This document shows positions 41,287-55,375 of a stretch of 64,000 nucleotides of DNA, one piece after another. This stretch comes from Candidatus Nitrospira nitrificans (GTDB lineage Bacteria > Nitrospirota > Nitrospiria > Nitrospirales > Nitrospiraceae). The notes under the pieces are model-generated. The model worked only from the letters and a program-made list of their open reading frames with translations. It did no database searches and was not told the DNA's origin. The DNA lies in NCBI RefSeq assembly GCF_001458775.1, contig NZ_CZPZ01000012.1, positions 248,001 through 312,000 on the forward strand. The letters run 5' to 3'. Within the stretch, counting starts at the first letter, position 1. Each line of letters opens with the position of its first letter. The position numbers were made by a program, and so were the translations under genes.

Positions 41287-42102
41287 ATGGCGACATCAAG
41301 TGACCGCGGGTATGATATTTCGCAGTGGTACGATTCGAAGCCGGTAAAGATCGGCTGGTTGGCGATGCTGGGGATCGGCGTGTTTTGGGTGCTGTACCAG
41401 CGGACGTTTGGGTACTCGCACGGGCTGGACTCCATGACGCCGGAGTTCGACTCGGTGTGGATGGGGCTGTGGCGGTTCAACATCCTGGCGAACGCCGTGT
41501 TCTTTGCCGTGTCGATCGGCTGGATCTGGGTGACGCGGGACCGGAACCTGACGAACCTGGACCCGAAACTGGAGTTGAAGCGGTACTTTTACTGGATGGG
41601 GTGGTTGGTGTGCTACATCTGGGGCGTGTACTACGCGGGCAGCTACACGTTGGAGCAGGATGCGGCGTGGCACCAAGTGATCATCCGGGACACGAGCTTC
41701 ACGGCGAGCCACATTGTGGCGTTCTACGGGACGTTCCCGTTGTACATCACGTGCGGTGTGTCGAGCTATCTGTATGCGCAGACGCGGTTGCCGCTGTACA
41801 GCCAAGCGACGTCGTTCCCGTTGGTGGCGGCGGTGGTGGGGCCGATGTTCATTCTGCCGAACGTGGGGTTGAACGAGTGGGGCCATGCGTTCTGGTTTGT
41901 GGATGAGCTGTTTGCGGCGCCGTTGCACTGGGGCTTCGTGACGTTGGGCTGGTGCGGGTTGTTCGGGGCGGCGGGCGGGGTCGCGGCGCAGATCGTGAGC
42001 CGGATGTCGAATCTGGCGGACGTGATCTGGAACAACGCGCCGAAGACGATTCTGGATCCGTTCCCCAGTCAGTTGAACCCCAACGCCAAGGCCGGATACT
42101 AA
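41287..42102 (+). CDS. amoC: Ammonia monooxygenase subunit C (stand-alone copy)
   Basis: This 271-residue integral membrane protein has about six helices and the AmoC/PmoC family signatures [77 protein letters not shown] and APLHWGF. The copper-site ligands are all present: D125, H129 (QDAAWH) and H142 (ASH). The overall pattern is closer to AmoC than to methanotroph PmoC. Ammonia monooxygenase oxidises ammonia to hydroxylamine in the membrane. No amoA or amoB is nearby, so this is one of the extra amoC copies known from nitrifiers. A GGAGG site precedes the ATG and a strong terminator follows. Codon use is strongly biased to G/C-ending codons, unlike the neighbours. Confidence 0.96.
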
Positions 42103-45345: not shown

Positions 45346-46287
45346 ATGCGAATTGTCTTTATGGGCACGCCGGAATTCGCCGTTCCGTCGCTTGACGCGC
45401 TTCTTCGATCCGACGATCAGGTGGTTGGCGTGGTCTCACAACCGGATCGACCAAAGGGCCGAGGGCATCAGCTCGTCGCGCCACCCGTGAAACTGGTCGC
45501 TGAACGAGCCGGGATTCCCATCCTACAGCCACTGAAGATTCGCACGCCAGAATTCTTGCAGGCCCTTGCTGCCTGGCGGCCGGATCTCATCGCCGTGACG
45601 GCCTTCGGACGCATTCTCCATGCGCCGATTCTGAGTCTTCCCCCGATGGGCTGTGTGAACGTGCATGGCTCACTGTTGCCCCAATATCGCGGCGCGGCTC
45701 CGGTGCAATGGGCCATCATCAATGGTGAGACAGAAACGGGTATTACGACGATGTTGATGGATGAGGGGATGGATACAGGGCCAATGTTGCTTCAGGAACG
45801 GCTGGAGATCTTGCCTGACGATACGACCGGGACATTGGCGCCACGACTGGCAGAGTTGGGCGGGAGGTTGCTGGTCAAAACGATCGCTCAACTGAAGGCC
45901 GGGAGCATAACGCCGACGAAGCAAGACGATGCGCGGGCAACCATGGCTCCACTTTTAAAGAAAGAAGATGGTCTGATCGATTGGACCAGGAATGCCAAGT
46001 CGCTGGCTGACCGAATACGAGGACTCTCCCCATGGCCGGGGGCCTATACGTTTTGTGGCCCAGAACGTTGGAACGTATGGAAAGCGGTTCCACGTACAGG
46101 TCCATCCGTCGACAAGCCCGGCACGATCGTGGCGGTGAATAAACAGGCGATCGTGGTGGAGACAGGGGAGGGTGTTCTCGAGATCCATGAAATTCAGACG
46201 GCCAATTCGAAGCGCATGCCGGTCGGCCAATTTCTGGCCGGGCACCGAGTCACGGCCGGTATGCAATTGAGTTCATCGACTGCATAA
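45346..46287 (+). CDS. fmt: Methionyl-tRNA formyltransferase
   Basis: This 313-residue protein begins MRIVFMGTPEFAVPSLDALL and has the catalytic block NVHGSLLPQYRGAAPVQWAI and DEGMDTGPML. The C-terminal tRNA-binding domain includes DRIRGLSPWPGAYTF. It formylates Met on the initiator tRNA using 10-formyl-tetrahydrofolate. It starts the fmt-rsmB-rpe-pheS-pheT run and diverges from tRNA-fMet. Confidence 0.96.
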   Translation: MRIVFMGTPEFAVPSLDALLRSDDQVVGVVSQPDRPKGRGHQLVAPPVKLVAERAGIPILQPLKIRTPEFLQALAAWRPDLIAVTAFGRILHAPILSLPPMGCVNVHGSLLPQYRGAAPVQWAIINGETETGITTMLMDEGMDTGPMLLQERLEILPDDTTGTLAPRLAELGGRLLVKTIAQLKAGSITPTKQDDARATMAPLLKKEDGLIDWTRNAKSLADRIRGLSPWPGAYTFCGPERWNVWKAVPRTGPSVDKPGTIVAVNKQAIVVETGEGVLEIHEIQTANSKRMPVGQFLAGHRVTAGMQLSSSTA

Positions 46288-46327: not shown

Positions 46328-47749
46328 ATGACTGACGAAAGACCGGTGCGTATCGATGTGCGGGGGCTCTCTCCACGATCTATCGCGCTCTCGATCCTTC
46401 TGTCCTGTCAACGAACCGATGACGCACTCGATGAACTCCTCGAGCAACAGGCCGCGTCGGTTCAGCAGCCTCGTGATCGTTCGCTGGTGATGGAGCTGGC
46501 GTACGGGACCTTGCGGCGGCAGGAGACGATCGACTGGAGACTGGACGCGGTTCTCTCCAAACCTCTCCATAAATTGCCCATTGTCGTTCAGATGTTACTG
46601 CGGCTTGGCGCCTATCAGCTGCTGTTTCTTGATCGCATCCCGGCTTCTGCGGCGGTGAACGAAGCCGTCCTCTTGACGAAGTCCTACGCCAACAAATTAG
46701 GTCGCGATTGGAGCGGGTTGGTGAACGGAGTCCTGCGTAATCTCATTCGTGTCCCGGCGCCGCCTCTCCCGGACCCGCTGAGTGACCCGGCTCGATCGTT
46801 GTCTATTCGCCATGGAATTCCCGTATGGTTGATCGAGCGGTGGCTCGACCGAATGGGATTTGAGCAAGCAGAATCGGCTTGTCGGGCAAGCAGTACGGCT
46901 CCACATGTGACACTGCGAGTGAACGCGAATCGACTCACCAGGGAAGAGTTGTTGGAGAAGTTGCGGTCGGCCGGTATTGAGGCATCCCCGACGGCTGTCA
47001 GCCCCGTCGGGGTGGTGTTGGGCAAAGGTCAGGAGGTCACGTCGTTGCCGGGGTTTCAGACGGGCGATTTCTATGTCGAGGATGAAGCGGCTCAACTTAT
47101 TCCTCGGATCCTTGATCCGCAACCAGGCGAAACCGTATTGGATGCCTGCGCCGCTCCGGGCGGCAAGGCAACGCATTTGGCCGAACTCATGGGTGATCGC
47201 GGAAGGATCTATGCGGTTGATCGGAAGACTGTCCGCATGGACCTTCTCCGACAAAATTGCGGACGGTTGGGCGCGCAGAGCGTCGTGCCGATCGTCGGCG
47301 ATGTGAGAACACCATCCGAATGGGTCGGGATGATCGCCCGCGGGCCGAACCTCCATGAGGGATCGCCGCCGTTCGATCGGATACTCGTGGATGCCCCGTG
47401 CAGTGGGTTGGGTGTGTTGCGCCGACATCCTGAAGCGAAATGGCGGAAGGACCGTTCGACGTTCGCCAGGCATCAGAAACTTCAAGCCGAAATCCTTGCT
47501 TCGGTGGCTTCCTGCTTGCGACCCGGTGGGGTGCTGGTCTATAGTATCTGCTCGACGGAGACGGAAGAGACGGAAGGGGTCGTCGCCCCTTTTTGCGAAG
47601 CCAATCCTGGATGGATGCGTGAATCTGTGGCGCCGTGGCTTCCCTCCACTGCTCTCCCCTTTGTCACTATCTGCGGCGCGCTCTCCACTATGGGTAACGA
47701 ATGCGGGATGGACGGCTTTTATGCCGCCCGCTTACGGAAGAAGGGGTAA
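46328..47749 (+). CDS. rsmB: 16S rRNA (cytosine-967-C5)-methyltransferase RsmB
   Basis: This 473-residue protein has an N-terminal NusB-like RNA-binding domain (residues 15-150). The SAM-dependent domain contains VLDACAAPGGKATHLAEL, DAPCSGLGVLRRHPEAKW and the catalytic cysteine region YSICSTETEETEG. It methylates C967 of 16S rRNA. The stop overlaps the rpe start by one base (TAATG), and pairing with fmt upstream is common in bacteria. Confidence 0.95.
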   Translation: MTDERPVRIDVRGLSPRSIALSILLSCQRTDDALDELLEQQAASVQQPRDRSLVMELAYGTLRRQETIDWRLDAVLSKPLHKLPIVVQMLLRLGAYQLLFLDRIPASAAVNEAVLLTKSYANKLGRDWSGLVNGVLRNLIRVPAPPLPDPLSDPARSLSIRHGIPVWLIERWLDRMGFEQAESACRASSTAPHVTLRVNANRLTREELLEKLRSAGIEASPTAVSPVGVVLGKGQEVTSLPGFQTGDFYVEDEAAQLIPRILDPQPGETVLDACAAPGGKATHLAELMGDRGRIYAVDRKTVRMDLLRQNCGRLGAQSVVPIVGDVRTPSEWVGMIARGPNLHEGSPPFDRILVDAPCSGLGVLRRHPEAKWRKDRSTFARHQKLQAEILASVASCLRPGGVLVYSICSTETEETEGVVAPFCEANPGWMRESVAPWLPSTALPFVTICGALSTMGNECGMDGFYAARLRKKG

Positions 47750-48450
47750 TGGGTCGTTCAATTCATATTGCGCCCTCGATTCTCTCCGCGGATTTCGCGC
47801 GATTGGCCGACGAAGTTTCCGCGGTGGAGCAAGCCGGCGCCGATCTGCTGCACGTGGATGTCATGGACGGGCATTTCGTGCCGAATCTGACGGTGGGTCC
47901 CCCCATCATTGAAAGCCTCAAGAAGGTCACGAAGTTGCCTCTCGACGTGCATTTGATGATCACCAATGCGGACGCATTTATTCAGGAATTTGTCCATGCC
48001 GGAGCCGACTATTTGACCGTGCATGTCGAAGCCTGTCCACACCTTCACCGGACGATCCAGTCGATCAAGGAGCGGGGAGCGAAGGCCGGCGTGACGTTGA
48101 ATCCGGCCACACCGCTCTCATCGCTTCAGGAGATCTTAAGCGATGTCGACTTGGTGTTGATCATGTCGGTGAATCCAGGATTCGGCGGACAAAAGTTCAT
48201 CCCATCGGTGCTCAGAAAAATCGCCGAGGCGCGGGCACTGTTGGACAAGATCAAAAGCCAAGCGCTGCTGGAAGTCGACGGCGGCGTCAAAGTGGAGAAT
48301 GCTCGAGAGATCGTGGCCGCCGGAGCGACCGTCCTCGTGGCAGGGTCCGCGATTTTTTCCCAACGCGACTATGCAGCCACCATTACGGCCATGCGGGCGG
48401 CCGGAGCAATGGCCGTCTCGCCGGCGTCACGCGCCGCGGTCCATCAATAG
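47749..48450 (+). CDS. rpe: Ribulose-phosphate 3-epimerase
   Basis: This 233-residue TIM-barrel protein has IHIAPSILSADFARLADEV, the metal-binding HVDVMDGHFVPNLTVGP, DVHLMI, MSVNPGFGGQKFIP and LEVDGGVKVENA. It interconverts ribulose-5-P and xylulose-5-P in the pentose phosphate pathway. Its start overlaps the rsmB stop. Confidence 0.96.
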   Translation: MGRSIHIAPSILSADFARLADEVSAVEQAGADLLHVDVMDGHFVPNLTVGPPIIESLKKVTKLPLDVHLMITNADAFIQEFVHAGADYLTVHVEACPHLHRTIQSIKERGAKAGVTLNPATPLSSLQEILSDVDLVLIMSVNPGFGGQKFIPSVLRKIAEARALLDKIKSQALLEVDGGVKVENAREIVAAGATVLVAGSAIFSQRDYAATITAMRAAGAMAVSPASRAAVHQ

Positions 48451-48459
48451 GCGGCTCGG

Positions 48460-50025
48460 GTGGACATCTCCACACTCATCGATAGTCTGCACCCTCTCGA
48501 AATCAAGGTACTCACCGCTTTAGGGCTTCGCCCGTCGGGAACCGCTCTGGACAGCGAACAGTTGGCCGGCGTCGCCGAGCTGGAGGCGTCTCAACTCAGC
48601 ATGGCGGTCGAGTGGTTATTGGCCAAGTCGCTCATCGCGGTCCAGACGGAAACCGTGACGCCCATCGTGTCGTTGACGAAGATCGGGGAAGAGTATCACC
48701 GGACCGCCTCGCCCATCGAGCGAGTCTTGGCGGCTGCGCGGGAAGCCACCGGCAACGGGAAAAGATTGACCATTCCCGATCTTCAATCGCAAGGCGGCCT
48801 GGACCCTTCCGCTGTCAGTAAAGCCGTGGGGCGACTGAAAAAGGAAGGGGTGGTTCTGATCGTCCAGGGCGGGTGCGTCGAAACAACCGGCCGCCCGAGT
48901 CCGACGGCCGAGGCACTCCGCACCCTCCTGGGGGAAATACATGACTCGCCGAAAGAGTTGAAGAGCTTCACGGAAGCCCATCGAGAGGTCATCGAAGATT
49001 TTGCCGTGAAACGCGGCAATGCCAAGGAACCGTTCCGTGTGGACGAGCGGGTGGCTCGCTCATTTGTGTTGTCACCGGACGGAGCCGGCGCGGCGGCGCA
49101 GTTGCTGACGCAGGGGGTTGCCAAAGAAGTCTCGCAGTTGACTCCCGACTTGTTGAAGGACGGAAGTTGGCGTCAGACGCGATTGAGAAAGTACACGATC
49201 AGCCTGCGCCCGCCTCGTATCGGAACGGGAAAGAAACATCCCTATCGCGAATTTCTCGATACGGTCAAAACCAAACTGGTGAGCATGGGGTTTCAGGAGA
49301 TGCGGGGGGCGCTGGTCGAAACGGAGTTCTGGGACATGGATGCCTTGTTCATGCCGCAATTCCATCCGGCCCGGGACATTCATGACGTCTATTTCGTCAA
49401 GGAGCCCAGCCATACCACCGCCGTGGATGAGCCGTTCTTGTCGCGTGTGGCCAAGGTGCATGAGAACGGCGCGGAGACTGGCTCCGCAGGCTGGGGCTAT
49501 TCGTTTGATGCGCACCGGGCCAAACGGTTGGTGTTGCGGAGCCAAGGCACCGCAGTGTCGGCTCGAACGCTGGCCGCCTCGCCGAACATCCCCGGAAAGT
49601 ATTTCTCGATCGCCCGGTGTTTTCGCTACGACCAAGTCGACGCCACCCACGCCACGGATTTCTTCCAGGTGGAGGGGATCGTGCTGGGAGAAGACATCAA
49701 CTTTCGGACGCTATTGGGGCTCTTGAATTTATTCGCCAGGGAAGTGGCGCAGGCGAAGGAAGTGAAGTTCTTACCGGCCTATTTCCCGTTTACCGAACCA
49801 TCGGTCGAGTTGCATGTGCGGCACCCGCGCCTAGGATGGATGGAACTCGGCGGCGCTGGACTCTTTCGCTCCGAAGTGACGTTGCCGCTCGGCGTCACGG
49901 TGCCGGTCATTGCCTGGGGGTTGGGGCTTGATCGCATGGCGATGGTGGCGTTGGGCATCCATGACATACGGGAACTCTTCACCGACAACCTGGAATTGAT
50001 CCGCACGACCCGAGGCCTGTTCTAA
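48460..50025 (+). CDS. pheS: Phenylalanyl-tRNA synthetase alpha subunit, archaeal/eukaryotic type
   Basis: At 521 residues this is much longer than typical bacterial PheS (about 330-350). Its N-terminal 200 residues hold winged-helix modules (LHPLEIKVLTALGL, LTIPDLQSQGGLDPSAVSKA) as in archaeal and cytosolic PheRS. The catalytic part has HPYREFLDTVKTKLVSMGF, ARCFRYDQVDATHATDFFQV, GLGLDRMAMVALGIHDIREL and YFPFTEPS. It starts at a GTG nine bases after rpe. The type implies acquisition from an archaeal-like source. It works with PheT, eight bases downstream. Confidence 0.92.
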   Translation: MDISTLIDSLHPLEIKVLTALGLRPSGTALDSEQLAGVAELEASQLSMAVEWLLAKSLIAVQTETVTPIVSLTKIGEEYHRTASPIERVLAAAREATGNGKRLTIPDLQSQGGLDPSAVSKAVGRLKKEGVVLIVQGGCVETTGRPSPTAEALRTLLGEIHDSPKELKSFTEAHREVIEDFAVKRGNAKEPFRVDERVARSFVLSPDGAGAAAQLLTQGVAKEVSQLTPDLLKDGSWRQTRLRKYTISLRPPRIGTGKKHPYREFLDTVKTKLVSMGFQEMRGALVETEFWDMDALFMPQFHPARDIHDVYFVKEPSHTTAVDEPFLSRVAKVHENGAETGSAGWGYSFDAHRAKRLVLRSQGTAVSARTLAASPNIPGKYFSIARCFRYDQVDATHATDFFQVEGIVLGEDINFRTLLGLLNLFAREVAQAKEVKFLPAYFPFTEPSVELHVRHPRLGWMELGGAGLFRSEVTLPLGVTVPVIAWGLGLDRMAMVALGIHDIRELFTDNLELIRTTRGLF

Positions 50026-50032
50026 TCACGCT

Positions 50033-51748
50033 ATGCCCACGATCACTATATTCAAGGACGATTTAGAATCGCTTCTCACGGGTGAGGACGGCGTCGACCG
50101 TGGCATTCCGATGGCTCAGTTGGAAGAGTGGCTCATGCTCGTGAAAGGCGAGCTGAAGGGGCACAATCAGGAAACCGGAGAGTTGCGGATCGAACTGCAA
50201 GACAGCAATCGGCCGGACCTCTGGTGTTGCGAGGGGATTGCCAGACAAATTCGCATCAAGCAACGAGGCCGGTTGACGCCGTATGCCTTCTTCGCCGAAA
50301 CGCCTAAGCCGCCGCATCATCTGATCGTAAAGCCCGGTATGGAGCAGGTGCGCCCGTATGTGGCAGCCTGTACGGCCAAGGGATATCGGGTGACTCAGAA
50401 GGGGCTGGCTCAGCTCATTCAAACGCAAGAGAAGTTGGCCGACATCTTCGGGCGTAAGCGCAAGACCGTCTCCATCGGAATCTATCAACTGCGGAATATT
50501 GCCTTTCCCGTGACCTATGAACTGGTGAAACCGGATGAAGTGCGGTTTACCCCGCTGGGCATGGAAACGACGATGACCCTATCGGAAATTCTTATGGTTC
50601 ATCCCAAGGGGCTCGAGTATGGGCCTATTCTGGCTGCTCACAGTCGGCTCCCTATCCTCCGAGATGCGAAGGCTCAACCGTTGTCGTTTCCCCCGATCGT
50701 CAATAGCCGGGAAATCGGAGAAGTTCGGGTGGGTGATGATGAACTCTTCGTTGAAGTGACCGGGACGGATCTGCCCATGGTGGTCCTGTCGCTGAACATC
50801 TTCGCGGCGAATTTAGCCGACCGCGGCGCAACCATCGAGCCGGTGGAAGTCCGGTATCCGACGAGCACGAAGTTGGGCACAAGGGTCACAACACCTCAAG
50901 ATTTTGGGAAGCCCACGACCATTCGGATGAAAGCGATTGAACAGGCGTTGGGCCAGGAGCTCGGCGAGGCGCTGGTGACACAAGCCCTTGAGGCCTATGG
51001 GTACGACGTGTCGGCGGAAAATGGATCAGTGCAGGCCAAGCTCCCGCCGTACCGCCATGATCTCATGCATACGATGGACGTGGTTGAAGACGTCGCTATG
51101 AGTCGCGGATATGCCGAGTTTACCCCGGTCATGCCGGCGCAGTTTACGGTGGGAGGATTGTCCGCCATTGAGCAGCTGTCCGATCGATCCCGAGAATTGA
51201 TGGTGGGACTCGGCTTTCAGGAAATCATTTCGAACATTCTCGGCTCGCCGGATCAGTATTGCCGTTCTATGCGTCTGGAAGGAACGGAATGGGGGAAGAC
51301 GGTCGAGGTCGATAACGTCATGTCGCTCAGTTTCTCCTGCCTCCGACAATGGATGCTGCCGTCATTGTTGCGCATCGAAGCCGCCTCGAGCCGAGCGTTC
51401 TACCCCCATCGCCTCTTCGAGGCCGGTGATGTGGCGATTCCCGATGGGACCCACGAGTTGGGGTCTCGAACGGAAACTGTCGTCGGCGCCTTGATCGCTC
51501 ACGCCACCACCCATTTCTCGGAAATCCATTCCTGTCTGGATGTGCTGTGTTACTACCTCGGCAAGGACTATAGCCTTGAGCCACTGCGGCATCCATCGTT
51601 TCTGGAAGGCCGTGCCGGCCGCATTCTCGTTTCGGGCAAGCCGGTCGGCGTCATCGGCGAAGTCCATCCGGAAGTTCTCGAACGTTGGCAGATCTCCATG
51701 CCGGTCGTCGCGTTCGACGTGAACCTGTCGAAGCTGACCGCGGGCTGA
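50033..51748 (+). CDS. pheT: Phenylalanyl-tRNA synthetase beta subunit, archaeal/eukaryotic type
   Basis: At 571 residues this lacks the EMAP-like tRNA-binding domain at the N-terminus and the ferredoxin-fold anticodon-binding domain at the C-terminus of normal bacterial PheT (about 790-800 residues). It has the archaeal layout: B3/B4 editing core (DSNRPDLWCCEGIARQIRI, RKTVSIGIYQLRNIAFPVTY), B5 (LPPYRHDLMHTMDVVEDVAM) and a synthetase-like core (RLFEAGDVAI, LVSGKPVGVIGEVHPEVL). It forms the alpha2-beta2 enzyme with the preceding PheS. Confidence 0.92.
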   Translation: MPTITIFKDDLESLLTGEDGVDRGIPMAQLEEWLMLVKGELKGHNQETGELRIELQDSNRPDLWCCEGIARQIRIKQRGRLTPYAFFAETPKPPHHLIVKPGMEQVRPYVAACTAKGYRVTQKGLAQLIQTQEKLADIFGRKRKTVSIGIYQLRNIAFPVTYELVKPDEVRFTPLGMETTMTLSEILMVHPKGLEYGPILAAHSRLPILRDAKAQPLSFPPIVNSREIGEVRVGDDELFVEVTGTDLPMVVLSLNIFAANLADRGATIEPVEVRYPTSTKLGTRVTTPQDFGKPTTIRMKAIEQALGQELGEALVTQALEAYGYDVSAENGSVQAKLPPYRHDLMHTMDVVEDVAMSRGYAEFTPVMPAQFTVGGLSAIEQLSDRSRELMVGLGFQEIISNILGSPDQYCRSMRLEGTEWGKTVEVDNVMSLSFSCLRQWMLPSLLRIEAASSRAFYPHRLFEAGDVAIPDGTHELGSRTETVVGALIAHATTHFSEIHSCLDVLCYYLGKDYSLEPLRHPSFLEGRAGRILVSGKPVGVIGEVHPEVLERWQISMPVVAFDVNLSKLTAG

Positions 51749-51930
51749 GTACTCACTCGCACTTCCGTCCTGAAATCAACCCGCTCAAACTCCGCCAAAA
51801 CAGCAGCCCTCTTTTTCTCCCCATACTCCCCATACGATTAAACGCTAAAGGCGCCACTCCTCCAGGAAACTGGAATAGCCCTTGCAGGAGAACGTCAGCC
51901 GGTGTGCTGATCTTTAGACTTCAGGCTTAA

Positions 51931-52190
51931 TTCGCCGCGCCGCACGGCAAACCATCAACGCTTCGACAGAGATCAGCCCGGGCGGCACCACGACCAATGT
52001 TGTGTACGATGGGCTCAATCCCGGCCCAAGAAAAGAACGGCACGACGGTCACAGCCAGTCTGCCCACCGGCTTGAATCCCTCGCTCCTGATGAAGCGTGA
52101 AGAGAGGACGCCCACTTCGGTGTCGAACAGAAGGGGAGGCGACAGAGTGCCGCTTCCCCTTGGAACAGGAACATTGTGTCTTAGCTGCTA
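51931..52190 (+). pseudogene. Rhs-repeat fragment
   Basis: In the gap between pheT and rplT a rightward frame encodes SPGGTTTNVVYDGLNP. After a one-base shift it continues AQEKNGTTVTASLPTGLN. This is the conserved Rhs pattern (YDGLN.VQE...T..LL.GL). The match is cut on both sides and frames are broken, so it is dead. The rest of the 445-base gap is unremarkable. Confidence 0.55.
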
Positions 52191-52193
52191 AAA

Positions 52194-52562
52194 TTAAACC
52201 GCGGCAGGCGTGAGGTGTTGCTTGGCGAGACCGCACAACTTTTCAAATCCCGCCGAATCCTTGATCGCCATATCCGACAAGACCTTTCGATCCAGCAACA
52301 CGTTCGCTTTCTTCAACGCGTTGATGAACCGGCCGTAGGTCAGCCCTTGGGCCCGAACGCCGGCGCTGATGCGGGCGATCCACAATTGCCGGAAGTCCCG
52401 CTTCCGATTCTTGCGGCCCGTATAGGCATACGTCAGCCCCTTGTCGACGCTTTCCGTCGCTGAACGGAAGAGACGACTCTTTCCGCCGTACTGGCCTGAT
52501 GCCAGCTTAATCCGCTTCTTCCGTCGGGCTCTTGTTTTTGGTCCACCTTTTGCGCGAGGCAT
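52194..52562 (-). CDS. rplT: Ribosomal protein bL20
   Basis: This 122-residue protein has the bL20 sequence: ARRKKRIKLASGQYGGKSRL, GRKNRKRDFRQLWIARISAG and RKVLSDMAIKD. It binds 23S rRNA early in 50S assembly and in many bacteria represses its own operon. It is the last gene of thrS-infC-rpmI-rplT. Where many bacteria carry pheST next, this strand has none. Confidence 0.97.
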   Translation of the reverse strand: MPRAKGGPKTRARRKKRIKLASGQYGGKSRLFRSATESVDKGLTYAYTGRKNRKRDFRQLWIARISAGVRAQGLTYGRFINALKKANVLLDRKVLSDMAIKDSAGFEKLCGLAKQHLTPAAV

Positions 52563-52853: not shown

Positions 52854-53360
52854 TTATTTGGGAGCCACAATCATGATCAAACTTCGTCCCTCCATGCGGG
52901 GGGCATACTCGATGGTGCCGGCTTGGGCCAATTGTTCAATGACGGAATTCATCACGGCGCGCCCCATTTCCTGATTGGCCATCTCCCGCCCGCGATACGT
53001 GAGGGTGACTTTGGTTTTATTGCCCTCTTCGAGGAATGTTTTCATCTGCCGAACTTTAATTTCAAGGTCGTGTTTATCGGTCCGTGGCCGCAACTTGATT
53101 TCCTTCACCTGCGTGGACTTTTGATGGCGCCGGCTTTGATGGTCCTTTTTACTCAACTCATACTTGTACTTCCCATAGTCCATGATGCGACACACGGGGG
53201 GAGTGGAGTTGGGAGCGACTTCCACCAAGTCATAGCCGCTTTCTTGAGCCTGACGAAAGGCGTCCGGTGTCGGAAGGATGCCGAGTTGTTCTCCCTCCGG
53301 GCCAATGACACGAATTTCTCGGACTCGGATCTCACGATTCACGCGCAATTTGGGAACGAT
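52854..53360 (-). CDS. infC: Translation initiation factor IF-3 (probable AUC start)
   Basis: The protein has the IF-3 N-domain (LRVNREIRVREIRVIGPEG, PVCRIMDYGKYKYE) and C-domain (TQVKEIKLRPRTDKHDLEIK, KVTLTYRGREM). There is no ATG or GTG at the right place. An ATC at 53360 follows GAGGT by five bases and gives the family start IVPKLRVNREI. A TTG four codons later (53348) has no well-placed ribosome site. IF-3 genes commonly use rare AUU or AUC starts, letting IF-3 limit its own synthesis. It follows thrS by 14 bases. Confidence 0.93.
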   Translation of the reverse strand: MVPKLRVNREIRVREIRVIGPEGEQLGILPTPDAFRQAQESGYDLVEVAPNSTPPVCRIMDYGKYKYELSKKDHQSRRHQKSTQVKEIKLRPRTDKHDLEIKVRQMKTFLEEGNKTKVTLTYRGREMANQEMGRAVMNSVIEQLAQAGTIEYAPRMEGRSLIMIVAPK

Positions 53361-53374
53361 AGGCCACCTCTTTT

Positions 53375-55303
53375 TTAATGTGTGTGTTGAAGTTCTCGCT
53401 GTGTATGCGTGACCTCGGCTTGCAGGAGATCCAGCACTTCAGCCACCGTCTTGCTCCCTAAATTCGACCCGCTTCGGCCTCGCACCGAGAGAGTCCCATC
53501 TTGCATCTCCCGATTCCCGGCGACCAACATGAACGGGACCTTCGCCTTTTCCGCTTCGCGAATCTTGAACCCGATCTTTTCGTTCCGGAGGTCTGCTTCG
53601 GCACGAAAGCCGGCCGCCTTCAATTGCGCCACGACGGCTGCGCTGTAGTCTTGCTGGTGATCGGTGATGTTCATGACGACGGCCTGCACCGGAGCCAGCC
53701 AGGGCGGGAACGCGCCTCCGTAATGTTCAATCAGGATACCGAAAAAGCGCTCGATGGATCCCATTAAAGCGCGATGGATCATGATCGGACGATGGGCTTT
53801 GCCGTCCTCTCCGATGTAACTTAACTCAAACCGCTCGGGATTGTTGAAATCCACCTGGACCGTGGAACATTGCCATGAACGGCCCAACGCGTCTTTAATC
53901 TTAATGTCGATCTTCGGGCCGTAAAAGGCCCCCCCTCCCGGATCAAGGTGAAAGGAGATGTGACGGCTCTTCAAAGCCGCTTCCAATGCGCTGGTGGCCA
54001 AGCTCCAATGTTCATCACCACCCACGGATTCTTTGGGCCTGGTGGACAAAAATACTTCAAATTGATGGAAGCCGAATGTCTGTAACACGAAAAATGTAAA
54101 GTCCAAGACCCGGCTGACTTCGTGTTCCATTTGATCCGGACGGCAGAAGAGATGGGCATCATCCTGCGTGAATCCGCGCACCCGCATGAGCCCGTGTAAA
54201 ACACCGGTCCGTTCATAGCGGTAGACCGTTCCCAGTTCTCCATAGCGGATGGGGAGGTCTCGATAGCTGCGCAGGTGAGATTGATAGATCATGATATGGT
54301 ACGGACAATTCATCGGTTTCAGCTGGTACTCGCTCCCCTCCAGCTTCATCGATGGGAACATGTTTTCGCGGTAGTAATCAAGATGCCCGCTGGTTTTCCA
54401 GAGATCAAGACGCGCGGTATGCGGTGAATAGACCAGCTGATACCCATCCCGAATATGCTGCTCTCGCCAGAAATTCTCAATCAAGAGGCGGACTGTCGCG
54501 CCTTTCGGATGCCATAGTACCAACCCAGGTCCGATCTCATCCTGAATGCTGATCAAATCCAAATCTTTTCCGACTTTTCTGTGGTCGCGTCGCTTAATTT
54601 CTTCCAACTTAGCCAGGTAGGCATCCACTTCCGCTTGTGTCGGAAAGGAGGTCCCGTAGATCCGCTGTAACATCGGATTACGTTCATCGCCACGCCAATA
54701 GGCCCCTCCGGTCGTGAGCAATTTGATGGCCCCGATGACACCGGTGGTAGGAAGATGGGGGCCGCGGCAGAGATCCACGAAGTCGCCCTGTGTGTAGGCG
54801 GTGATCGGCTCTCCATCGGGAAAGCTTTGAATCAGCTCGACCTTATAGTGCTCTCCACGGGAGCTGAAAAAATCAATTGCATCCTGCTTCGAAAACTCCC
54901 GCCTGGTGATAGTGAGGTTACGCTTGATGATTTCAGCAGCCCGTTCTTCGATTCTCTGCAAGTCTTCGGGGGTAAAGGGACGTTCGAAGGCGAAGTCATA
55001 ATAGAAACTATCTTCCAGGGCCGGGCCGATGGTCAGTTGTGCGGACGGGAAGAGTTCCTTGACTGCCTGGGCCATGAGGTGGGTGCTGCTGTGGCGGTAC
55101 ACTTCTCGGCCTTCCGCACTGTCGAACCGCAATGGTTCGATGACTGAATTTCCGGATAGTGCGGACGACAAATCGACAACCGCTCCGCCTACTTTGGCTG
55201 CGAGAATATCCTGCCCGGAGACTCCTAACTCAGACAGAGCGCCACCCACCGTCACCCCGGTCTGAATGTCACCGCTTGGACCGTCTTTGACCGATATCTT
55301 CAT
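53375..55303 (-). CDS. thrS: Threonyl-tRNA synthetase
   Basis: The protein of 642 residues has an N-terminal TGS domain, the editing domain with HSSTHLMAQAVKELFP and CRGPHLPTTG, the catalytic core with the zinc cysteine in LKPMNCPYHIMIY, motif 2 in GTVYRYERTGVLHGLMRVRG and motif 3 in PIMIHRALMGSIERFFGILI. The C-terminal anticodon-binding domain follows. The start at 55303 gives MKISVKDG. A terminator-like hairpin lies only 25 bases upstream, so expression may depend on readthrough. Confidence 0.96.
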   Translation of the reverse strand: MKISVKDGPSGDIQTGVTVGGALSELGVSGQDILAAKVGGAVVDLSSALSGNSVIEPLRFDSAEGREVYRHSSTHLMAQAVKELFPSAQLTIGPALEDSFYYDFAFERPFTPEDLQRIEERAAEIIKRNLTITRREFSKQDAIDFFSSRGEHYKVELIQSFPDGEPITAYTQGDFVDLCRGPHLPTTGVIGAIKLLTTGGAYWRGDERNPMLQRIYGTSFPTQAEVDAYLAKLEEIKRRDHRKVGKDLDLISIQDEIGPGLVLWHPKGATVRLLIENFWREQHIRDGYQLVYSPHTARLDLWKTSGHLDYYRENMFPSMKLEGSEYQLKPMNCPYHIMIYQSHLRSYRDLPIRYGELGTVYRYERTGVLHGLMRVRGFTQDDAHLFCRPDQMEHEVSRVLDFTFFVLQTFGFHQFEVFLSTRPKESVGGDEHWSLATSALEAALKSRHISFHLDPGGGAFYGPKIDIKIKDALGRSWQCSTVQVDFNNPERFELSYIGEDGKAHRPIMIHRALMGSIERFFGILIEHYGGAFPPWLAPVQAVVMNITDHQQDYSAAVVAQLKAAGFRAEADLRNEKIGFKIREAEKAKVPFMLVAGNREMQDGTLSVRGRSGSNLGSKTVAEVLDLLQAEVTHTQRELQHTH

Positions 55304-55327
55304 GACGTACGGACTTGACCCACAGTG

Positions 55328-55375
55328 CAAAAAACAACAAAGGCACTACGCCTCTTAAGAGGCAAAGCAGTGCCT
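55328..55375 (-). terminator. Terminator or attenuator between tRNA-Val and thrS
   Basis: An outer 7-bp stem (AGGCACT/AGTGCCT) encloses a perfect palindrome (GCCTCTTAAGAGGC). On the minus strand it is followed by TTTGTTGTTTTTT. It begins 11 bases after the tRNA-Val 3' end and its T-run finishes 25 bases before thrS. Confidence 0.8.

What the first reader, a model, noticed from the sequence alone, without database searches (positions are those of the whole stretch)
48460..51748. Archaeal-type PheRS placed where bacterial pheST is often found
Seen: pheS is 521 residues with N-terminal winged helices and pheT is 571 residues without the bacterial tRNA-binding end domains. They lie convergent to, and directly beyond, thrS-infC-rpmI-rplT. 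Known: in many bacteria pheST follows rplT, and archaeal-type PheRS occurs in a few bacterial groups such as spirochaetes. The arrangement suggests that an archaeal pair replaced the ancestral one near the original position.
Basis: partly seen in the sequence, partly recalled or inferred. Interest (0 to 1): 0.6.

Follow-up and report, generated by a model that had tools for sequence, protein, structure and literature searches.

The report
Archaeal-type PheRS replaced bacterial pheST in Nitrospira
This Nitrospira charges its phenylalanine tRNA with an archaeal-style enzyme whose genes sit where bacterial relatives keep the ordinary bacterial version, so an essential enzyme was swapped across domains of life while the tRNA it serves stayed bacterial.

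Summary
pheS (521 aa) and pheT (571 aa) are archaeal/eukaryotic-type subunits; pheT lacks the bacterial tRNA_bind and FDX-ACB domains. They lie convergent to rplT-rpmI-infC-thrS, 445 bp away, and the genome has no other pheS or pheT.

Of 295 genomes of the phylum, 164 have archaeal-type and 119 bacterial-type pheT over cut-off, none both. Bacterial-type relatives mostly have thrS-infC-rplT-pheS-pheT on one strand. In most archaeal-type families the foreign pair lies beyond the same rplT, inverted; in family f37 it sits collinearly in the old slot, and its tRNAPhe differs by one base from those of bacterial-type relatives.

Trees of both subunits put all sampled archaeal-type PheRS of bacteria (Spirochaetota, Nitrospirota, Latescibacterota, others) in one clade apart from the sampled archaea. 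Species and PheRS trees conflict inside Nitrospirota: one main acquisition plus at least two later transfers (f16, f37) fits best.

The kind is known (spirochaete PheRS, Andam and Gogarten 2011); I found no open-access paper on Nitrospirota. Added here: comparative gene-order evidence for replacement at the original site, the wider bacterial clade, and the unchanged tRNA.

The parts
48460..50025 (+). pheS, archaeal/eukaryotic-type PheRS alpha subunit, 521 aa: three N-terminal helix-turn-helix modules plus class II catalytic domain
50033..51748 (+). pheT, archaeal-type PheRS beta subunit, 571 aa; no tRNA_bind and no FDX-ACB domain
45346..46287 (+). fmt, methionyl-tRNA formyltransferase; start of the fmt-rsmB-rpe-pheS-pheT run kept in many archaeal-type relatives (name from the protein sequence, not searched)
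46328..47749 (+). rsmB-like rRNA methyltransferase gene, same run (name from the protein sequence, not searched)
47701..48450 (+). rpe, ribulose-phosphate 3-epimerase; ends 9 bp before pheS
51749..52193 (.). 445-bp convergent gap between pheT and rplT; no remnant of bacterial pheST detected
52194..52562 (-). rplT, ribosomal protein L20
52615..52809 (-). rpmI, ribosomal protein L35 (64 aa, read from the sequence)
52854..53348 (-). infC, translation initiation factor IF-3
53375..55330 (-). thrS, threonyl-tRNA synthetase

Best explanation
pheST here encode the cell's only phenylalanyl-tRNA synthetase, of the archaeal/eukaryotic (alpha-beta)2 form. Shown: both subunits are archaeal-type; no other PheRS is in the genome; the pair belongs to one clade of archaeal-type PheRS found in several bacterial phyla; bacterial-type relatives keep bacterial pheST behind rplT, while most archaeal-type relatives keep the foreign pair beyond the same rplT. 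Inferred: an archaeal-type pair entered an ancestor of Nitrospira's class and neighbouring families, settled beside the thrS-infC-rpmI-rplT cluster, and the resident pheST behind rplT was lost. The pair was later passed within the phylum at least twice more (f16, f37), in f37 taking the old collinear place. The enzyme should activate Phe in the alpha class II site, edit Tyr-tRNAPhe in the beta B3/B4 domain, and bind tRNAPhe through the N-terminal alpha modules instead of a beta C-terminal anticodon domain. It does so on a tRNAPhe that stayed bacterial in sequence (C20 or U20, not the archaeal G20).
For: Family profiles and domains; single PheS gene; mutually exclusive distribution in 295 genomes; collinear thrS-infC-rplT-pheST in bacterial-type families, convergent archaeal-type pair at the same rplT in f1-f5, f8, f9, f13, f19 and f20, collinear archaeal-type pair in f37; native left flank in f37; one bacterial clade of archaeal-type PheRS in both subunit trees; species tree rejects one clade of archaeal-type families (AU p 2e-5) while the PheRS tree nests f16 and f37 inside the main group (AU p 0.0014); tRNAPhe of f37 one base from the bacterial-type form; alpha N-terminal fold like human PheRS.
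Against: The pair in this window is convergent to rplT, not collinear, so it is not a simple gene-for-gene exchange and neighbourhood could partly be chance. In f7, f12 and f16 it is not near rplT in the stretch read. No remnant of the old pheST was found. The archaeal donor is unresolved because few archaea could be sampled. Charging and editing are not measured.
Confidence: 0.82

Rival explanations
1. The archaeal-type pair was ancestral in the phylum beside rplT, and bacterial-type pheST was regained later by the bacterial-type families.
For: Archaeal-type families occur on several branches of the species tree, and its deepest forks are poorly resolved.
Against: It needs more changes than loss from a bacterial-type ancestor, and bacterial pheST would have had to re-enter exactly behind rplT, the order usual in bacteria. 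f16 and f37 PheRS are nested inside the main archaeal-type group instead of branching as the species do (AU p 0.0014).
Confidence: 0.1
2. The pair was acquired by transfer, but its place next to rplT is coincidence: it entered with or behind fmt-rsmB-rpe and that block happened to end beside the cluster.
For: Convergent orientation; fmt-rsmB-rpe-pheS-pheT is kept in f12 although rplT is not near; unrelated genes in the gap of some species.
Against: Contact with rplT is kept in ten convergent families and is collinear in f37; no archaeal-type locus of another phylum shows thrS, infC or rplT nearby.
Confidence: 0.25
3. Assembly chimera or contamination with archaeal DNA.
For: None found.
Against: Same arrangement in the complete chromosomes of N. 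moscoviensis (L121), Ca. N. defluvii (L128) and Ca. Manganitrophus (L140); 468-kb contig; base composition like the neighbours.
Confidence: 0.01

Closest known systems
Archaeal-type PheRS of Spirochaeta, Borrelia and Treponema (Andam and Gogarten 2011, PMC3191353)
   Same: Archaeal-form alpha and beta subunits of similar length as the only PheRS of a bacterial lineage, acquired together; one clade with the Nitrospirota genes in both trees.
   Different: Another phylum, a separate branch of the clade; not next to thrS-infC-rplT in the spirochaete loci read. Andam and Gogarten saw affinity to Thermococcales; here the partial P. horikoshii PheT groups with the other archaea.
Archaeal/eukaryotic cytosolic PheRS (human 3l4g, P. 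horikoshii 2cxi)
   Same: Subunit architecture: N-terminal helix-turn-helix modules in alpha, short beta without B2 and B8, editing Asn conserved.
   Different: Works on a bacterial-type tRNAPhe without G20; forms a bacterial clade with its own motif 2 form, mostly DF[FYN]QxEG against EF[HND]Q in the archaea sampled.
Classical bacterial thrS-infC-rpmI-rplT-pheS-pheT cluster
   Same: Same rplT-side neighbourhood; present with bacterial pheST in other families of the phylum.
   Different: Foreign pheST of another type, convergent to rplT in this window.

Membership tests
Archaeal/eukaryotic-type PheRS | alpha subunit fits the archaeal-type full-length profile | tested here: met
   NF003210 562 bits, cut-off 350, residues 9-518
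Archaeal/eukaryotic-type PheRS | N-terminal helix-turn-helix / winged-helix modules in alpha | tested here: met
   predicted residues 1-220, pLDDT about 90; best PDB match 3l4g_C; a prediction, not a solved structure
Archaeal/eukaryotic-type PheRS | beta subunit fits pheT_arch and lacks B2 and B8 | tested here: met
   TIGR00471 455 bits, cut-off 283; no PF01588, no PF03147
Archaeal/eukaryotic-type PheRS | editing-site Asn (Asn217 in P. horikoshii) | tested here: met
   Asn224 of PheT aligns with it; role from PMC3275996
Archaeal/eukaryotic-type PheRS | charges tRNAPhe with G20 identity | tested here: not met
   own tRNAPhe has C20, relatives U20 or C20; this concerns the partner tRNA, not the protein family
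Archaeal/eukaryotic-type PheRS | aminoacylation and Tyr editing activity | not testable with these tools
   no assay
Bacterial-type PheRS | pheT_bact over cut-off, with FDX-ACB | tested here: not met
   110 bits against 403; no FDX-ACB
Horizontally acquired archaeal-type PheRS of bacteria (spirochaete kind) | groups with spirochaete PheRS apart from archaea in both subunit trees | tested here: met
   100* in both; archaeal sampling limited
Horizontally acquired archaeal-type PheRS of bacteria (spirochaete kind) | sole PheRS of the genome | tested here: met

The most novel reading that the evidence does not exclude
All archaeal-type PheRS of bacteria descend from one ancient entry into Bacteria that adapted once to bacterial tRNAPhe. 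It then behaved as a transferable alternative form of an essential enzyme, repeatedly displacing bacterial pheST across phyla, sometimes at the same chromosomal slot and with no change in the host tRNA.
Probability: 0.45. Interest if true: 0.65.

Novelty: new member of a known kind. Interest (0 to 1): 0.5.

Why it matters
PheRS is essential, and archaeal/eukaryotic and bacterial PheRS-tRNAPhe pairs are described as not cross-reacting (PMC3275996). Nitrospirota offers related families with nearly identical tRNAPhe but enzymes of different type, so how a cross-domain synthetase swap is tolerated becomes directly testable. Practical side (own knowledge): pheS and pheT serve as bacterial marker genes, and bacterial pheT profiles miss this lineage; inhibitors aimed at bacterial PheRS may not act on these nitrifiers.

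Tried and rejected
Second or bacterial PheRS in the genome: none. Plasmid-borne archaeal-type pheT: none among 72,556 plasmid records; hits were bacterial-type at about 24% identity. Remnants of bacterial pheST in the pheT-rplT gap of 12 loci: nothing better than chance. Terminator or promoter in the gap: none found by consensus scan. A bacterial-like Phe pocket (YFPF) as a special feature: sampled archaea show the same range, dropped. Recent foreign base composition: pheST resemble their neighbours. First marker tree carried wrong type labels for named loci; corrected. More archaea: locus ids were not accepted as centre, and the relatives searches gave one unnamed archaeal phylum and Aenigmatarchaeota relatives only. 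rpoBC AU test under the mixture model did not finish; done with fewer rows under LG+G4. Three genomes without either pheT (G222, G226, G234) also lack a full pheS, so incomplete assembly is likely.

Full report
Observation. pheS (48460-50025, GTG start) and pheT (50033-51748) are 7 bp apart, and pheS starts 9 bp after rpe. PheS fits the archaeal-type alpha profile NF003210 almost end to end; PheT fits TIGR00471 pheT_arch far over cut-off and TIGR00472 pheT_bact far under it. Pfam sees neither tRNA_bind nor FDX-ACB in PheT. The nearest solved structures by sequence are eukaryotic cytosolic and P. horikoshii PheRS. AlphaFold places three helix-turn-helix modules in residues 1-220 of PheS with pLDDT about 90, although the catalytic part is poorly modelled; the best Foldseek match is the long human alpha chain 3l4g_C. 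thrS-infC-rpmI-rplT run towards pheT from the other side, with a 445-bp gap.

Sole enzyme. The window's genome (4.1 Mb, 99.8% complete) has one PF01409 gene, this one. In 295 genomes of the phylum, archaeal-type pheT is over cut-off in 164 and bacterial-type in 119. The two sets follow families (f1-f13, f16, f19, f20 and f37 against f14, f15, f17, f18 and most of f21-f39), and no genome has both. Eleven further genomes from the named loci, including N. moscoviensis and two archaea, have no bacterial pheT over cut-off either. Family codes are the tool's own; no names are given for them.

Position. In bacterial-type families the order is thrS-infC-rplT-pheS-pheT on one strand (f15, f17, f18, f21, f25, f27, f28, f30-f33, f35, f36, f38; parts of it in f22 and f26; not seen in the stretch read in f14, f23 and f29). 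In archaeal-type families f1-f5, f8, f9, f13, f19 and f20 the foreign pheT and pheS lie convergent beyond the same rplT. In f7, f12 and f16 they are not near it in the stretch read; for f6, f10 and f11 too little flank was available. In both f37 genomes the archaeal-type pair follows rplT on the same strand, the classical slot (L081, L229). There ThrS, IF3 and L20 are like those of the bacterial-type relatives (L20 up to 74% identity), while the genes after pheT are not. fmt-rsmB-rpe precedes pheS in many archaeal-type families. None of the archaeal-type loci of other phyla shows thrS, infC or rplT nearby. No trace of bacterial pheST is left in the gaps.

Trees. In the PheT tree (87 rows) and the PheS tree (73 rows) all archaeal-type PheRS of bacteria form one clade (100*) apart from the archaeal rows (and, in PheT, P. 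horikoshii and human). Spirochaetota are one clade (100*); Latescibacterota/Gemmatimonadota, deltaproteobacterial, Planctomycetes and Armatimonadetes representatives (names as in the records) stand between them and Nitrospirota. Nitrospirota is one clade in PheT (91) and, with one Armatimonadetes row inside, in PheS (90). Archaea were limited to two groups plus a partial P. horikoshii PheT, so the archaeal donor is not identified and the single-clade result is provisional.

History inside the phylum. rpoB+rpoC puts archaeal-type families f1-f13, f19 and f20 (those sampled) together (100*), but f37 as sister to bacterial-type families (99*) and f16 near f14 and f18. The ThrS+IF3+L20 tree agrees for f37. 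The species data reject one clade of all archaeal-type families (AU p = 2e-5, LG+G4). The PheS+PheT tree joins f16 and f37 (100/100) inside the main group, next to f19 (94/95), and rejects holding the main group together without them (AU p = 0.0014). One main acquisition followed by at least two transfers within the phylum is the simplest account; the exact route is inference.

tRNA. The own genome's tRNAPhe (locus L320) has C20, U45, U59 and A73; those of archaeal-type relatives have U20 or C20, never G20. Published identity sets give U20, U45 and U59 for bacteria and G20 for archaea (PMC9976931). Each of the two f37 tRNAPhe genes (L289, L313) differs by one base from the form of the bacterial-type families f15 and f31 (L285, L286). 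So the enzyme type changed while the tRNA did not.

Mechanism. From established PheRS structure (PMC3275996): Phe activation in the alpha catalytic site, Tyr-tRNAPhe editing in the beta B3/B4 domain with Asn in place of the bacterial His, and tRNA binding that cannot use domain B8, which is missing; the alpha N-terminal modules are the likely substitute. The class II motifs and the editing Asn are present. Activity itself is untested.

Known or new. Archaeal-type PheRS in spirochaetes is published (PMC3191353). Searches of the open library found no report for Nitrospirota, but subscription journals are not held. The kind is known; the Nitrospirota case, the replacement-site evidence, the wider bacterial clade and the unchanged tRNA are what this adds.

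Noticed in passing
L086, L099, L101 (bacterial-type families f15, f32, f35); pattern in most of f21-f39 by profile coordinates: Bacterial-type PheT of about 690 aa lacks the B2 tRNA_bind/EMAP domain by a clean internal gap but keeps FDX-ACB, while f14 and f17 PheT have B2.
   Followed up: partly
PheS motif 2, window PheS residues 386-407: Archaeal-type PheRS of bacteria have mostly DF[FYN]QxEG where the sampled archaea have EF[HND]Q: a possible signature of the bacterial clade.
   Followed up: partly
L062 5695-8755 and L111 7720-10576: In some Nitrospira the pheT-rplT gap holds about 3 kb of other genes, different in each case, so this convergent gap takes up insertions.
   Followed up: no
L327 (G108, same genus): A second copy of only the 3' half of tRNAPhe, not called as a tRNA by ARAGORN, as left by an element integrated at a tRNA gene.
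   Followed up: no
window 41287-42102: An amoC gene, with no amoA or amoB noticed in the ORFs listed around it; such separate amoC copies fit comammox Nitrospira.
   Followed up: no
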